Assembly: GCA_006503535.1 (NCBI GenBank)
Contig: QYRS01000001.1
Location: 5,022,001-5,086,000 of the forward strand
Direction: 5' to 3'
From: Arthrinium phaeospermum
Lineage: Eukaryota; Ascomycota; Sordariomycetes; Amphisphaeriales; Apiosporaceae
Length of the DNA stretch: 64,000 nt
Part shown: in pieces, positions 53,899-62,348 of the stretch
How the letters are laid out: each line of letters begins with the position of its first letter
How positions within the stretch are numbered: the first letter of the stretch is position 1
Made by a program: the position numbers and the translations under genes
Notes under the pieces: generated by a model
The model's database searches: none
Seen by the model: only the letters and a program-made list of their open reading frames with translations
What the model was told of the DNA's origin: nothing

Positions 53899-54726
53899 TC
53901 AAAGCTTAGATACCAGCGGGCCGTGATCTTCGTCCAAGAGCGAAAGGGTGTTGTCGCCATCATGAACGATCGTGACATGAGGTGGAGCCGATGAGAAGTC
54001 GATTTTGAGGGCGCGAGAGAGGTCCATCTCACCGGTTTTGTACTCCTGCTTCACATCTGTCGTCGACACGGGCAGGATATAGTAGACTCTACCGGGCCGG
54101 ATTTGGTACTTTGTGCTGGGGGCTGGGGTAAAGGCAGCGTGGAGGCCGACATGGTCGTTGGGAGCGATACCCAACCCAAGGGCAACCATCAAATGGCCTG
54201 TAATATTTTGGTTAGCTTAGCTTTACCTGCTTGGTCTATAGTCCCTGGAGGGGTTTATGTGGGATCTTGGTCACATTGCAAACATACCGTCCCTGGCCTC
54301 TTTGAGAGTGAATCCGTCCCCCGTCTTGAGGCAGAAAGCACCGAGCCCACCCCAGTCAGCGCCACTTCCTTCCCAGAGGCCGAAGCAGGGGCTCTTCCCA
54401 GAGGCGGCCGTCTTGAGCACGACAGTCGTCCCACGGGCGTCGTGAGGCGGGCCTGTTCCGAGCCTCACCGGCTGCCGGTCTAGCACAGACATGCGCGCCG
54501 CCTCGTGTTGGTAGACTGTCCCGCAGACGGCGAAGAAGCTGTCGCGCTGGATCACGAAGGTGGCGGTGCCAGTCGAGCTGGGAACGTCTCTAGCATGTAG
54601 CAGCGGGTGTGACACCAGGCCTTCGGGCGTTGGCTCGATGGATGGAGGCTGGCTGAGCAGAGAATAGTTCTGTACGCCGCCCGATCTGTTGTATACCGTG
54701 AAGGAATAGGTCGTGTTTGGGTCCAT
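53899..54726 (-). CDS. Hypothetical protein, divergent paralog A
   Basis: Two exons (54726-54288, 54197-53899) join in phase 1 to 245 residues. It starts SYSFTVYNRSGGVQNYSL-like (NTTYSFTVYNRSGG), with CGTVYQHEAARMSV in the middle, and ends with HVTIVHDGDNTLSLL. It aligns along its length with the plus-strand gene at 55167 (NKTGGPQDYAFF; CGSFQG; HVTLVHDGDMNFYF), and the single intron interrupts both at the same place and phase (after an ARD/AKD motif). Beta-rich composition, no signal peptide, no membrane span. Function unknown. Shares a 440-bp intergenic promoter with its paralog. Confidence 0.8.
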
Positions 54727-55013
54727 GGTCGGAGGAAACCGATGGGATGGAGTGCAGGGGAAGTTGTGAATGTGTCTACTTTGCCGCCATCGGAATCAAT
54801 AAGTATGCAATGCAATGCTCGGAAAAGAAAAGTGGCCACATCTAGATCAGCTCCTCAGCTGGGTCAGATTAGCCACAATCGCCAATCCCTGTGTTGGATT
54901 TCACCGCCAGGCGCCAGGTCTGGAATCGGCCACAGTCCAGCTGAGACGACTTACATGTTGAAACATACGGTTCATGCAACAAGCTATTATCGAATATGTA
55001 AGCTGGTTTTGTT

Positions 55014-55023: not shown

Positions 55024-55166
55024 AGATTCCCCTTCTCTCCGTTCCATGCTCATTCCCTTCTTAATCACCAAACTCCCAGAGCAACTCCAATCTTGCCACA
55101 TTCCTCAGTTCATAACCCGCAGCTACTTCTTCATCCCGAAATCCAAGCCCATCTCGTGTCTTCACA

Positions 55167-55955
55167 ATGCCTAACTCCTACAAAATCACTGTCCTCAACA
55201 AGACCGGCGGTCCACAGGACTATGCCTTCTTCAACGCCGCGCCCATCGTTTCCGGGGGCGTCAGCGGCCCCATCTGGAGCAACGTCATGAAGGCGGCGGA
55301 CCACACCTCCAACGGCGGCCAGGCCAGCTTCGAGGTCTCGACTACGTACTATGCCACGTGCGGCAGCTTCCAGGGCACCCCCGACCAGGGCGGCAAGGTC
55401 ACCATCAGCAAGTCTGTCCCCGTCGACCTGGGCTCCCGCATCGGAAACAACATCACCCAGGGGTCCAGCGTCAACCTGACCGTCTACAACCAGTCGGCGT
55501 GCGACCTGGATCCCCCTACCACGCCGGGCCAGGGCAAGCTCGGAAACTTCCAGCTGGACACGGCCTGCAAGCCGGAGAACCGATTCACCATGCAAGACGC
55601 CAAGGATAGTGAGTTCAACCGCTCCCCCTCCACCATATTATGTGATTGTTACTTGACTCTTGATTGTGCATCTTTCTGACGACCCAATGACACAGACAAC
55701 TTGCTGGTCGGCATCGCCACGACGGGGGATGGCGAAATCACCAAGGCCATGGCCTCCTTCGCCCCCTACCCCAACGTCAAGTACCAGATCATGCCGCAGG
55801 CCATCTTTCACGTGGGGGTCGGCAGCCGCTTCAAGGTCGGGGATATTGTCAAGGCCGAAATGATGGGGAACACCATGGCCGTGGATTTCAACATGCGGGG
55901 CACGAACCATGTCACTTTAGTCCACGACGGCGACATGAACTTCTACTTCCAGTAA
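55167..55955 (+). CDS. Hypothetical protein, divergent paralog B
   Basis: Two exons (55167-55608, 55696-55955) in phase 1 give 233 residues. Motifs: YKITVLNKTGGPQDYAFF, YYATCGSFQGTP, VNLTVYNQSACDLD, GIATTGDGEITKAMASF and THVTLVHDGDM-like end (NHVTLVHDGDMNFYF). It is the partner of the minus-strand gene at 53899-54726, with the same intron position. The predicted fold is a beta-sandwich-like cytosolic protein; there is no signal peptide. GC-rich codon use contrasts with the AT-richer NACHT and kinase genes on either side, hinting at higher expression or a different history. Confidence 0.82.
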
Positions 55956-56196: not shown

Positions 56197-57914
56197 TCAC
56201 ACAGCAATGTCATTGAGTTTTGCGATGATCTTCTCAATGAATCGCACGCCGACTATGATCCCATCCTCATCGGTCATCTCCGACTCCTCGCCAAAGTCAT
56301 CGTTGTCAACATCGAGACACGTAAGACAAGTCGCGACTACAGCTGAGTACCTGGGCCCCATACGACGTGAGAGCCGCATCTTGGCGAGATAGAGCAATGA
56401 GTCCTTGATTCGGCATGCGTTTTGCATGTCTTGCGGAAGCATTGGATGATCGCCTTCTTTGTCAGGCGTCGAGTCGGTGTTTACTTCTCCTTCGTCTATC
56501 TCTGCAAGCAATGGCCCTCTCTTGGGTTTCCCGTCCAAAGCATCGTATGTGACGAGAGGCGTGGAAAGGCCTAACTCGAGTAAGCACACCCCGAGGCTGT
56601 AGATATCGTGTTGCATGATATACGATGCCTCGGGGTTGAGCCCCTGCCGGGTGGGGTGGCGGTACAAGTTCTTGTGCCAGTCTGCATCCCCTTTTCGCAG
56701 TGTCCCCGCATCTGCTGAGCGAAAACACCCAAACCCGACGAGAAAGGTCGACATTGAGTCCCCTTCGGGGGTTTCAAACATGATGATTGCCTCTGGATGG
56801 ATGTTCTTGTGAACAAAGTTGAAGTTGTGCACGAAGCCGACCGACGTGGCCAAGTCTCTGGCAATCTGTATCTGCTGGCTCAGGTGCAGGCGATCATGAT
56901 TCTGCATTAGTACCTGACGCAGGCTAGTCGGTGCTGTGAGTCCTTCCGGTACATGGTAAATAAAATTGTACTGTTCGACTTCTTGGCTGTTCTGTCTCTG
57001 AGCAGTGATGGCACCTTTTGCCTTTAAAAGGCCGAAGGTGTTTGGGTCGGCATTGGCCAGCTTTCTCGCCAGATCGCGGACGTCCTTTCTTACAGCAATC
57101 TGATCGCTTTGAGGCGGGACGACGAACCTGTCGACGATGAAGTGCCTGGGGGGCTTGCCCTTGCTGTGACGCAGAGCCAGTCTGGCAGGGGAGAGCGCGA
57201 TGGGAGAAACCTCCAGTGACGGGTCGAGAGGCAAGAAGACGGAAACCGAACGTTGGGGAGTTTCACGCAGCGAGTCCCGGATCCCATCCGCTAGCGACAC
57301 AGGGGCTCTGGCGGTTGAAGCAGTCGACGGCACTGTCAGACCGTCTTGGCGCTTGGTCTTATCGGTGGCGGCGTCTTTCTCATTTAGCTCGCGAAGCTCC
57401 TGGTCGATGAGAGGATTCGCAATTCTCATCATGAGGAACCAACAGGGGTCGAATCGCTTCTGCCACTGTTCCAGGTCTTCCATGATCGCATCGAGCGTGT
57501 TCTTCGTGAGCGCATACCGCCCACGGTTGACCTTCCATTTAAAGGCGAGTGCGTTCGTGGCGCCCGGTGACTCCAGCAACTTGTCCAGCTTGGCGGACGC
57601 CAAAGTCAGCTTCATTACCAGTAGGGCAAGGACTTTGTCGATGGTATCAAGGAGATCAGCGTCAATCGTACTGGCGATCTTCTGGATGAATTCTATCTGG
57701 ACTTTGGTCTGGGCCCAGTGGAGGTCTAGTCTGGTGACCCTCTCTCTGACTTCGATGTCCGCATTCTTCCAGTCTTCGCACGCTTTGGCGATGCGTATAC
57801 CAAGCCTGTTGATAGCCCATTAACAACTCGTATGATCCCAAAGTAACAGAGTGGCCAGCATACTTACTTAAAGCAGAGTTCCACCGCTGTCAGGATTGTA
57901 CCCGGTTCTGCCAT
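56197..57914 (-). CDS. HeLo-like domain fused to a pseudokinase
   Basis: Two exons (57914-57868, 57805-56197) give 551 residues. The N-terminal 200 residues are helical and follow the HeLo (prion-inhibition and propagation) pattern: EPGTILTAVELCFKLGIRIA, WKNADIEVRERVTRLDLHW, then long amphipathic helices. HeLo domains of HET-S-type proteins insert into membranes and kill the cell. Residues about 230-520 have a kinase-like fold: VHKNIHPEAI at 347-356 in place of HRDxxxxN, VGFG at 372-375 in place of DFG, LYRHPT as the APE-like element, and DIYSLGVCLLELG as helix F. There is no recognisable glycine loop or VAIK lysine, and the catalytic Asp is Asn, so it should be inactive. It is divergent to the active kinase gene at 58553 across 638 bp. 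Confidence 0.82.
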
Positions 57915-58552
57915 ATCAGTGGAATCAATGTTTTGTGTATTGGGAGAGTCGATGACAGGTGGGGAGGAGGGGGATGTGGCTGGGCAGCTGACAGAGTGAG
58001 CCACCAAGCCCCTTGGAGAATTAATAAGTCAGGTCTAATAGACCACAAGGCTGCTATCTCAGTCTAATGATCAGCATAATAGAGGAATGAGCCTTTGAGA
58101 GATATTGAATAGTTATACTGGAATCTAGTATACAGAGTATTTACTTCCCTATCTTAATCGGGGGCAAGTGGAATGAACAAGGTAGATATATATCGGTACT
58201 GCCAGTGGGCAAAGTACGCCTGGTTCCAGCGGTCGCTTGCCGCCGGACCACCCAGATTGGGGGCTAGATGAAGCCCCCGCTCATGCACTGCCTGCAGCTT
58301 TGCTGTGCCTCTCTTCCTGCGATCAGGTTTGTTCAGCTTTCTCGCTGTTTTCCTCCTGCTCAATCATTTCGTACAACGGGCGATGGGCGTTCATCAATCA
58401 AACCGCACTATTATCACAGAATGTTGGAGATCTAATTACAGTCCTATCATTATTGATTGCTAGTCACTCTACTGAGAATCGATTCCGATAATCTCCCCCG
58501 CAAAGGGCCCACCTCTCCCGATAATGTCGCGGCGCGAGCGACGGGACCGACC
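57915..58552. promoter_or_regulatory. Shared divergent promoter of the pseudokinase and kinase genes
   Basis: 638 bp between two start codons facing outward. No gene inside; no TATA consensus at the expected spacing for either gene. Co-regulation is plausible from geometry alone. Confidence 0.45.
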
Positions 58553-61500
58553 ATGTCATCTCCTTCGTTTGCCACCTCAGTCTTGGTACAGCAGCTTTCC
58601 GACCTCGTGCAGGACTCGAAGCTAGAAACGAAGGCTCTCGAGTCTTGCATTCAGCATGTCTTCTACGAGACCGGTCGCACGGCCCACGAACGGCGTGTCC
58701 GTCGCTCCGAGCAGTGGGTCCGCCAGCGCTTTCTTGGTCGCGGTGCTTATGGGACTGTCCATCTCGAGCGGTGTATAACAGGCGAGAATCAAGGGGAAAG
58801 GCTCCGCGCGGTTAAGGAGATCAAGAAATGCGTCGTTTCTGGGGAGAAGCTGGACTACGGCCGGGAGCTAGAAGCCATTGCCAAATTCTCTAATCATAAC
58901 GTAAAGTTGCAGCCATTTCATGCGGTTTCCTTTTAATTCGATTGCCAGTTTTACTAATATTCTCTTGGCTTCGTAGTACGCGCATTGCTTTGTGACATCA
59001 CAGGGATGGTTCGAGACGAACGAATCTATATTCATCGCCATGGAATACTTGGAAGACGGCGACTTACAGCGGTACCTGACGAGACCGTTACCCGAGGCCG
59101 AAGCAAAAATTATTATAAGCCAAGTGCTCGAGGGTTTGCAATACATGCATGAGAATGGCTTTGCCCACAGGGACCTAAAGCCCAGCGTATGCGCCCCCTC
59201 CCACCGCCCACTAATTGCCCGTAGCAATACAAGCTGCAACATATACTAAAGACAATTACTAACACGAGTTGATCAGAATATCATGGTGGTGACCTCGGGC
59301 CCGGATTGGTTCGTCAAGATCGCGGATTTTGGCATCAGCAAGCGGCGTCAACAGGATGTCACGACTTTGCATACCCCTAGGCGCGGCACCTTTGGTTATG
59401 CGGCCCCCGAAGTCTTCGGTTTTACACCTGATAGTACCTACACCTTTGCGGTCGACATGTGGTCGCTCGGTGCTGTAGCTTATCGCATCCTCACGAACTG
59501 CATCCCGTTCCCGACACTAGCTGATCTATCAGCGTATATGATGGGCCAATCGACATTTCCCTCTACTTCGTTCGGGCTGCACAACGTACCAATGATAGCG
59601 CAAGACTTCATCATGAAGCTCATGGCAACGGATCCGAAGGAGCGCTTGACGGCTACCACCGCTAGTATGCATGAGTGGCCAACAGAGAAACCATCTAGTT
59701 TGGGACAACCTCTGAGCAACGAGTATGTCGTCATATGCACATTTCAAGTTGATAGCTAATAAATAGACACAGACATCCATCGCTCGTGACTACTCCAGTG
59801 GCTGTTGAAGCTGGCATGCTTTCTGGCTCCGCTTCGAATGCTTGGAGCACAGACGACTTTTTGCCTTCATCAGAAAGTACAACTCTTCGACCTGGTAACG
59901 CAAAACACCATAATTATCAGCCACCATCCGTACCGGATAACCAAGAAGACAACATTGTCCAGAGGCAAAGTCTTCCTTCTGACTCGACGATACTCCTGGA
60001 AGAAGCGGGCCCGCATTCTCTGACATTCGGTCTAAACCCATCCAAGAAGCCATGCCCGAGTCATCAAGAAGGGGAAATGAATAGCAGCACTCCACAGACA
60101 CTTGAGGGTAATGAATATGAGGAACCGATCATTCTCATGGCTAACGAAACATCCGTTTTCGATGGACGAGCCTCAACTTCAATCGCTGCCAACACACGGT
60201 CATCCTGTAGCAGCACCGGTACTTTCGAGCGCACATATTGTCAGTTCGATGACGACTCATCTGACCCACCCTTTGTTCGTACACCAAAATGTCATTGGTG
60301 TGACAGTCACCACTGGGTAACTCTCGAGCAACTACCATGCGGTCATTTAGTTTGCCACCCTTGCTTGTTGGAGTCATTTGCCAAAGCAATGTCTTCGACA
60401 TCACATACTCCTAAATGCTGCGATGTGATCGATTTCCGCTATGCAAAGAAACTCGTTCATACGTCTGATTTCAGAGCAGCGTTGGATGTCATGCGCGACA
60501 TCACGAGCAATTGGACTTTGGAGCCATGGCATTGTGGCAACGACCATTGCTGTGACGGGAAACCGGCATGGGAAGGAAGAGTGCCATTGAAACAACTACG
60601 GGTGACTTGTGAGCGTTGTGGCATTACAACGCGCAATTCTGGGTCTCCAACTGCCTTCCCTCAACGACGCGGCATGTGCCTCTTCTGTAAGAGTCGTGGG
60701 TCTTGCGAAATTAATTGTCGGGTCCGTTATACCGGTTCATCCGACTTGCTCCTGAGCAGAATGGTCTTTTTGTACCATGGCAATGGTAACATGTCCTCAA
60801 TTGCGCGCCGGGGAATCGAAGCTATGACCTCTGGTAAATACCTGGAGTTGACTTCATGGGCCAAAGCGAGGGAGTCTATCGGTCCGATATGCTTTCCAGC
60901 AACGAGGGCGCTCAATGGCAAGGGGTCGGATGTCGAGTTTGATGCCGATGAACCATATGTTTATGCGTGCGAAGCCGACAGCGACATCAGTGGCTTATCT
61001 TCAACTCTCAGTGACGCATACCGTGGAGTTGTTGATGGGAGGGACCTTGACTTCGACAACTATGCCCGGTCCTCATCACCACATTTGCCTGCAAGAAGGG
61101 TTGGTCATGGGCCAAGCTCTCTGACAGCTGGATCACTCGTCGGGAAGAGGACAAAGCCATTCATTGAGGACAACGTCAGTACGGTGTCATCAAAGACAGA
61201 GTACCTATACCCACCCCCAATCCCACATGCGGAGCGTGGCATTTCTGCATCACGAACAAATAACGTTCGGTACGCTCGTCGGTACGCTCCGCCTGGAATG
61301 ATGTTCCCTTACCGACAGCCTCAACAACGACATAGTACACAGTACGGTCATCAACACTGGGAAAGGGACACCGCAGAGTCCCGATCATTGTGGGCGGGTC
61401 CACCATATAATGTCGAAGTGCCTAAAGATGTCAGGGAACCAGGTAAGTAATTACCTCGATAAGCACGTACCTTTTTGGGCCTTGATTTGACAACCTAGCA

Positions 61501-62348
61501 GGAGAGAAGAAGCATACAGGGCCGTGATCAAATGTCACTGGTGTTTCGGAACCTTCGAGGACTCAAATTCTAGTCCTATCGAACAGCTTTCATGCCAACA
61601 TGTCGTCTGTCATGCGTGTATGCTCAAGTCCATTGCTTTATCCCTCATCTCGCCGTTGTACATGGGCCCAAGATGCTGTGGGGAGGAAATTGACATCTGG
61701 TCCTTCAAAAGACTTGTAGTCGCCCCGGAAGTTCATAAGGCATGGAACTTCATGTTTGAATTCACGAAAACGATGAGAGCCAGCCCATGGCTTTGCCCCA
61801 ACTACCACGTTGGCTGTCCTATGGTCTCGAACAATGAGATCCCGATTTGGAACCCAAGAGCTCGGTGCGACGACTGTTTGGCATCGAACCAGAAATGGAA
61901 TAGGTTCTGTCTGTTCTGCAAGGGAATGGACTGTTGGAGCGATTGCATTAAGCAGCACAGTGATGCCATCGCCTCCTTCCTAGGCAAGATATACTTCGTG
62001 AAGGCGAGAGCCCAAAGCCTGGTAACAGACGCCTGTCAACTTATGGATATCGCTAAAAGGGACAACTGCATTAAGTGGCTGGATTTGGCAAGTCACGAAG
62101 TCACGGCTGATATACCTGGAACATGGCAATTCCCCCCAATGAGCCACCGCATCCGAGCTCCCGCAAATCGGTTGGAAAGAGGCTATCACGTTCAGCCAAC
62201 AATACCAAATTTGAAACTGAGGAGTCGCGTCGTAAAAGAGAAGACAGGGAAAAAGGAATTGCATTTTGAAATACTTACACGCATCGAGAGGAAAAGGCTT
62301 ACAGAATTACTTAGAGAGGGAACGGGAAAGCAACCGCAGGAAAAGTAA
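58553..62348 (+). CDS. Active Ser/Thr protein kinase fused to two RING-like zinc modules
   Basis: Exons 58553-58900, 58977-59186, 59277-59722, 59773-61442 and about 61509-62348; about 1,170 residues. The kinase is complete: glycine loop LGRGAYGTVHLE (about 61-72), Lys88 in RAVKEI, Glu105 in the C-helix, HRDLKPSN (180-187), ADFG (Asp203), YAAPEVFG and VDMWSLGAVAYRIL. A disordered linker follows. A RING-like module comes next: C508, C511, C524, H526, C529, C532 and CC 550-551, then HCGNDHCC, CERC and CLFCKSRGSC, reminiscent of RBR-type RING1-IBR E3 ligases. A second linker leads to a diverged copy of the same module (IKCHWC, CQHVVCHAC, PRCC, CLFCKGMDC). The last splice has no perfect acceptor; several in-frame AG sites near 61508-61514 work. 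It may be read as two genes, but the 3' part has no ATG. Confidence 0.82.

What the first reader, a model, noticed from the sequence alone, without database searches (positions are those of the whole stretch)
56197..62348. Necroptosis-like gene pair: helical-bundle pseudokinase next to an active kinase
The minus-strand gene couples a HeLo-like helical domain to a kinase fold lacking the catalytic Asp (HKN for HRD) and the DFG Asp (VGFG). Animal MLKL has the same order: a four-helix killer domain, then a pseudokinase switched on by the kinase RIPK3. Here an active kinase gene starts 638 bp away in the opposite direction. HeLo domains have been compared with the MLKL bundle in published work on fungal cell death. 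My inference: the active kinase controls the pseudokinase, releasing the HeLo domain to attack membranes in a self/non-self or stress response. I do not know this particular two-gene unit as a described system.
Basis: partly seen in the sequence, partly recalled or inferred. Interest (0 to 1): 0.88.

Follow-up and report, generated by a model that had tools for sequence, protein, structure and literature searches.

The report
Fungal kinase and pseudokinase gene pairs
A fungus related to Apiospora carries an MLKL-shaped protein (helical bundle plus dead kinase) head-to-head with a live kinase, and the same arrangement recurs at four other places in its genome, hinting at a kinase-switched cell-death system like animal necroptosis that has not been tested.

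Summary
The minus gene (57914-56197, one intron, 551 aa) is a predicted helical bundle followed by a full kinase fold lacking the catalytic Asp (HKN) and DFG Asp (VGFG). Exactly 638 bp away, divergently, starts a kinase with intact motifs and RING-like segments.

New result: the host genome holds six clear members of this pseudokinase family, and five of six lie head-to-head with an intact protein kinase. Partner kinases carry different extra parts (RING-like, ankyrin, Hsp70, or none recognised). Controls: 0 of 16 other DUF7580 genes and 0 of 8 HeLo genes without pseudokinase had such a neighbour in the flanks examined. One Apiospora arundinis assembly has the focal pair on consecutive locus tags.

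MLKL-like signs: GFE for DFG in 45 of 82 relatives, and an activation-loop Thr/Ser in 82 of 82.

Weak point: 'HeLo' is not shown for the focal N-terminus by sequence or fold search; two head-to-head paralogues do carry Pfam HeLo there. Linkage outside Apiospora, phosphorylation and killing are not shown. HeLo-like/pseudokinase fusions are already in print; my searches found no description of recurrent kinase pairing.

The parts
56197..57914 (-). Helical-bundle pseudokinase gene, 551 aa; exons 57914-57868 and 57805-56197, intron 57806-57867
   Evidence: Gene model; orthologues up to 84% identical; the second in-genome pair has an intron at the same place
57360..57914 (-). N-terminal helical bundle, residues 1-165: four long helices in the model of orthologue P0003, then brace-like helices
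   Evidence: AlphaFold; no HeLo match by sequence; fold search inconclusive
56197..57240 (-). Pseudokinase domain, about residues 205-551
   Evidence: Pfam; fold matches about residues 199-547 of P0003; motif census
56791..56814 (-). VHKNIHPE: HKN in place of HRD
   Evidence: N/S/G/H in 80 of 82 relatives, D in 2
56728..56742 (-). LVGFG: GFG in place of DFG; GFE in 45 of 82 relatives
56701..56703 (-). Thr384, candidate phospho-acceptor in the activation loop; Thr or Ser in 82 of 82 relatives
   Evidence: Thr381 of P0003; window position worked out by hand from the gene model; role inferred
57915..58552 (.). 638-bp stretch between the two start codons, possible shared promoter
   Evidence: promoter role inferred, not scanned
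58553..62348 (+). Divergent intact protein kinase gene, about 1,150-1,175 aa; introns 58901-58976, 59187-59276, 59723-59772 and a fourth near 61443-61506 (splice sites unresolved)
   Evidence: relatives
58721..59678 (+). Catalytically intact protein kinase domain (residues 57-320)
   Evidence: Pfam PF00069 1.6e-50; motifs
60300..60870 (+). First RING-like Cys-rich segment (limits approximate)
   Evidence: 31% to A. marii P0121 and 27% to the second segment; Pfam RING far below cut-off
61491..62348 (+). Second RING-like Cys-rich segment and C-terminus
   Evidence: 49% to A. marii kinase P0121 over 188 columns; Pfam RING below cut-off

Best explanation
The pair is one of a family of divergent two-gene units that work like RIPK3-MLKL. 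The kinase, through its variable extra part or upstream signals, senses a trigger and phosphorylates the activation loop of the neighbouring pseudokinase. This changes the pseudokinase shape and releases the N-terminal helical bundle, which oligomerises at a membrane and kills or isolates the hyphal compartment in a non-self or stress response. Shown: both proteins, motif states, domain order, recurrent pairing. Inferred: every functional step (phosphorylation, release, membrane attack, trigger).
For: Five of six clear in-genome family members are head-to-head with an intact kinase. 0 of 24 control genes are, in the flanks examined (Fisher 4.2e-05). From kinase matches in the genome the chance of 5 of 6 is about 1e-10 or less, or 3e-06 to 7e-06 for 3 of 6 if only three kinase types count as independent (rough, since one search counts exon matches and scored 120 of 193 candidates). 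The focal and C1:4759 pairs have introns at the same places in both genes (by eye) at 37% and 40% identity, and the C9 and C4 pairs match each other at about 30% in both genes, so pairs look inherited as units. Two head-to-head paralogues have Pfam HeLo N-termini (3.8e-26, 5.8e-20). The kinases' extra parts vary (RING-like below cut-off, ankyrin, Hsp70), and by my count of the precomputed Pfam column 15 of the 65 best focal-kinase relatives (P0121-P0185) carry WD40, TPR, ankyrin or a NACHT-type domain. MLKL has GFE for DFG and is phosphorylated at T357/S358 just after it (PMC6013482 and PMC5104457, passages); here GFE is in 45 of 82 and a loop Thr/Ser in 82 of 82. Consecutive tags PG987_009884/009885 in A. 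arundinis.
Against: No HeLo match for the focal N-terminus by Pfam or by hhalign against 11 in-genome HeLo sequences (probability 0.4 and 1.5 per cent), and neither MLKL nor HeLo among the fold rows shown (inconclusive; helix 1 was truncated). One of six family members (C5) has no kinase neighbour. Outside Apiospora, of five species with a listed member of both families, four have them on contigs of different length. The conserved loop Thr is shown only for the focal subfamily; the C9, C4, C3 and C5 loops were not aligned. Strand 230-241 shows no conserved lysine, whereas MLKL keeps VAIK Lys230. No functional data.
Confidence: 0.42

Rival explanations
1. The pseudokinase is an allosteric partner or scaffold that activates or places the kinase (as STRAD does for LKB1, recalled), in non-lethal stress signalling; the helical bundle is a dimerisation part.
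For: Pseudokinases commonly do this (recalled). The fold search of the focal N-terminus listed generic helical bundles.
Against: Two paralogues in the same arrangement have Pfam HeLo domains, a family with tested cell-death members (PMC12881547, passages). Partner kinases come in different types.
Confidence: 0.2
2. The kinase restrains the pseudokinase: a killer-and-restraint or allorecognition pair in which mismatched alleles cause death.
For: Close linkage, and uneven divergence: focal pseudokinase 70% and focal kinase 45% overall (69% in the kinase domain) to A. marii best hits, against 93% for the second-pair kinase (the A. marii hits may come from different strains or be paralogues). HET-V is a two-gene locus of a modifying enzyme and a HeLo reader in allorecognition (PMC9262711, passages).
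Against: No population data; divergence could reflect paralogy or gene loss.
Confidence: 0.15
3. Linkage is a by-product of old duplications of one pair and the two proteins do not act together.
For: Pair members seem to duplicate together; synteny within a genus is expected by default.
Against: Adjacency has outlasted divergence to 30-40% identity and exchange of the kinases' extra parts; control genes lack it.
Confidence: 0.13
4. The kinase acts on other substrates, and the pseudokinase is switched by something else, such as an unlinked NLR.
For: Fungal HeLo effectors are classically switched by NLR amyloid motifs (PMC7889193, passages); the C5 member has no kinase neighbour.
Against: A simple RHIM-core pattern was found in none of the focal-pair proteins; other amyloid motifs were not scanned for. 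The C-terminus here is a kinase fold.
Confidence: 0.1

Closest known systems
Animal RIPK3-MLKL necroptosis module
   Same: Helical bundle then pseudokinase; DFG replaced by GFx; Ser/Thr in the activation loop; a separate active kinase
   Different: Partner is an adjacent divergent gene whose kinase carries variable extra parts; no RHIM-core pattern found; HKN rather than HGK; no conserved lysine in the strand examined; function untested
Fungal HeLo/HELL proteins (HET-S, HELLP, HELLF) paired with NLR genes (PMC7889193, passages)
   Same: Two-gene clusters in filamentous ascomycetes; in two paralogous pairs the same Pfam HeLo domain
   Different: C-terminus is a pseudokinase and the partner is a kinase; focal N-terminus not recognisably HeLo by sequence
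HELL domains fused to kinase/pseudokinase, noted in PMC12881547 (passages and section 18 seen)
   Same: Same general architecture, described there as reminiscent of MLKL
   Different: The passages seen mention no adjacent active kinase gene
Podospora het-V locus (PMC9262711, passages)
   Different: Methyltransferase plus TUDOR reader instead of kinase plus pseudokinase
Plant MLKL-type proteins (PMC10951266, search listing; PMC12881547, passages)
   Same: N-terminal HeLo-related bundle with a kinase-like domain
   Different: Kingdom; sequences and gene order not compared here

Membership tests
MLKL-type executioner | Kinase fold lacking catalytic residues | tested here: met
MLKL-type executioner | N-terminal four-helix bundle joined by brace helices | tested here: inconclusive
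   Helices of the right number and place, but no MLKL row in the fold lists shown and helix 1 truncated in the second model
MLKL-type executioner | Ser/Thr in the activation loop as kinase target | tested here: inconclusive
   Residue present in 82 of 82 of the focal subfamily; phosphorylation not testable here
MLKL-type executioner | Membrane permeabilisation and cell death | not testable with these tools
   needs bench work
HeLo domain (PF14479) | Profile match over cut-off in the focal protein | tested here: not met
   (E up to 1): no match in the focal protein or the other 62 members at E 0.1
HeLo domain (PF14479) | Profile match over cut-off in head-to-head paralogues | tested here: met
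   Met in C9 and C4 genes, and in the unpaired C5 gene; not in C1:4759, and no match at the C3 gene
Amyloid-switched HeLo effector | C-terminal amyloid motif and adjacent NLR gene | tested here: inconclusive
   C-terminus is a kinase fold and the divergent neighbour a kinase; only a RHIM-core pattern was scanned for
RIPK-type activating kinase | Catalytically intact kinase | tested here: met
   Motifs intact by sequence; activity not testable here
RIPK-type activating kinase | RHIM motif | tested here: inconclusive
   No [VI]Q[VILC]G in the focal proteins; simple pattern only
RIPK-type activating kinase | Phosphorylates the MLKL-type pseudokinase | not testable with these tools
   needs a kinase assay

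The most novel reading that the evidence does not exclude
Filamentous fungi run a phosphorylation-switched necroptosis that is independent of amyloid NLRs. It is built from divergent gene pairs in which a helical-bundle pseudokinase executioner is matched to receptor-like kinases with exchangeable modules (RING-like, ankyrin, Hsp70-like and, in relatives, WD40/TPR/NACHT-type), giving one genome several parallel kinase-to-MLKL-like circuits.
Probability: 0.35. Interest if true: 0.9.

Novelty: new variant of a known kind. Interest (0 to 1): 0.7.

Why it matters
In the papers seen, fungal links to necroptosis rest on the killer domain and the amyloid motif. A kinase-to-pseudokinase step is the missing part of the animal pathway; recurrent adjacent pairs make it directly testable with two genes, and would bear on whether the RIPK3-MLKL logic is old or invented more than once.

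Tried and rejected

Cross-genus linkage: no fungal contig collection could be opened here, so I compared contig lengths and locus tags. Of five species outside Apiospora with both families listed (matched by species name), only Massariosphaeria phaeospora has them on a contig of the same length (2,144,533); Pestalotiopsis sp. NC0098, P. fici W106-1, Halenospora varia and Aspergillus egyptiacus (short contigs) do not. Species whose two hits came from visibly different assemblies were left out (for example Fusarium falciforme, Neoarthrinium moseri, Endocarpon pusillum). The lists show the best 120 hits each.

Rows dropped or judged: the six family members are those found by the focal query and confirmed at 69.9 bits or more. 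C8:2858361 (18-bit pseudokinase match, no kinase in 4.8 kb upstream) was left out of both groups; counting it gives 5 of 7. C9:1469050 (18-bit match) was kept among the DUF7580 controls. C3:500723 was counted as a control without a pair although a kinase lies 5.9 kb upstream with another frame between. Three of the 19 DUF7580 matches were not counted as controls: two are family members (C5, C3:1322) and one is a second piece of the C7:2904 gene. The 8 HeLo controls had only 1.5 kb of flank, which would have missed the C4 type, where the kinase domain lies about 3.4 kb away behind the Hsp70 part. The DUF7580 controls had 3.8 kb or more upstream of the match.

RHIM-like core: none in the focal proteins; one match in the C4 pseudokinase, taken as chance.

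Full report
The window lies in a 48.4-Mb genome of 19 contigs. The closest named relatives of both focal genes are from Apiospora, so the host is probably an Apiospora or close kin; it is not named.

The N-terminal 165 residues are predicted as four long helices and further helices (fragment without residues 1-16), in the place of MLKL's bundle and brace. Sequence methods do not link them to HeLo and the fold lists are inconclusive. One relative is named by its depositors as a HET-s/LopB domain protein (P0109), which I do not weigh.

The plus gene starts 638 bp away in the opposite direction and codes for an intact kinase (Pfam 1.6e-50; motifs). Of its 65 best relatives (P0121-P0185) 65 match a loose DFG pattern and 60 a simple catalytic-loop pattern. 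It ends in two RING-like segments, both below the Pfam cut-offs; the second is 49% identical to the A. marii kinase P0121 and the first is a diverged copy. By my count 15 of those 65 relatives carry WD40, TPR, ankyrin or a NACHT-type domain in the precomputed Pfam column (domain names recalled from accessions).

The decisive finding came from searching the host genome. The focal pseudokinase as query finds six genes, itself included. Five of six lie head-to-head with a protein kinase: C1:5078 (focal); C1:4759, partner of 389 aa with HRDLKPGN and DFG, with introns at the same two places as the focal kinase by eye; C3:1322, partner with VAVK, HGD and DFG; C9:2881, partner with HKD and DFG plus ankyrin repeats; C4:766, partner with an Hsp70 part, HRD and DFS. 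The sixth, C5:2656, has no kinase in the 10 kb fetched, about 5 kb of it upstream. The C9 and C4 genes carry Pfam HeLo domains (3.8e-26 and 5.8e-20), and so does C5. The C3 gene begins with a HeLo-like first exon by eye without a Pfam match, and the C1:4759 gene has no HeLo match.

Controls: of 16 DUF7580 genes outside the family none has a kinase within the 3.8 kb or more examined upstream of the match (one has a kinase 5.9 kb away beyond another frame); of 8 Pfam-HeLo genes without pseudokinase none has one within 1.5 kb. Fisher's test for 5 of 6 against 0 of 24 gives 4.2e-05, and from the kinase matches in the genome a divergent kinase within 3.5 kb is expected for 0.5-0.7% of genes (rough, because one search counts exon matches and scored 120 of 193 candidates). 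The six genes are related, so these are not independent draws; with three kinase types as the units the chance figure is 3e-06 to 7e-06. The focal and C1:4759 pairs match each other in both genes (37% and 40%), and so do the C9 and C4 pairs (about 30% each), which suggests that whole pairs were duplicated and kept together.

In relatives, A. arundinis has the pseudokinase as PG987_009885 and the kinase as PG987_009884 on contigs of the same length. In A. aurea both are on a contig of the same length. In A. marii the focal pseudokinase orthologue (PG985_013097) and the kinase of the second pair (PG985_013216) are on a contig of the same length, 119 tags apart, fitting the roughly 0.32 Mb between the two pairs here. 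The nearest A. marii relative of the focal kinase (P0121) is on a contig of another length, perhaps another strain. Outside Apiospora linkage is not shown. The pseudokinase family itself is wide: 1,357 proteins at E 1e-3 among the 8,000 candidates scored; the named ones among the 120 listed that I recognise are filamentous ascomycetes (taxonomy recalled).

Mechanism. I take a kinase-to-pseudokinase switch releasing a membrane-active bundle as most likely (0.42). The pairing and motif states are shown; phosphorylation, release and killing are inferred. Scaffold, restraint and by-product readings remain open.

Literature. Ten full-text searches in the open PMC library. [quoted passage not shown] Kinase domains are also known among the effector domains of fungal NLRs (PMC10197012, passages). 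I saw no description of a recurrent adjacent active kinase; most subscription papers and preprints are not held, and the 2016 PNAS paper on HELL domains was not held. The other papers named were seen as passages (PMC7889193, PMC9815663, PMC9262711, PMC12258605, PMC10890737).

Noticed in passing
L039:4736-8688 (C4:768235-772187): A gene joining an Hsp70 ATPase (Pfam 3.9e-62) to a protein kinase, head-to-head with a HeLo-pseudokinase gene; a possible chaperone-type sensor.
   Followed up: partly
window 54271-54795 (-) and 55116-55955 (+): Two divergent genes coding for similar small proteins (MDPNTTYSFTVYNRSGG..., MPNSYKITVLNKTGG...); no Pfam match for the pieces scanned.
   Followed up: no
window 60300-60870 and 61491-62348: The RING-like segment of the kinase is present twice here, while both copies match one segment of A. 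marii P0121.
   Followed up: partly
L036:5414-5585 (minus strand): The open frame upstream of the second-pair kinase start continues in frame and holds a VQIG tetrad like a RHIM core; probably chance, start codon unproven.
   Followed up: no
C3:493909-501448 (L046, L041): A kinase and a DUF7580 gene in divergent orientation with a third frame between them; may be a looser version of the pair.
   Followed up: partly
focal pair versus A. marii: Focal pseudokinase 70% and focal kinase 45% overall (69% in the kinase domain) to best A. marii hits, while the second-pair kinase is 93%; uneven divergence as in allorecognition genes, or mixed strains and paralogues.
   Followed up: no
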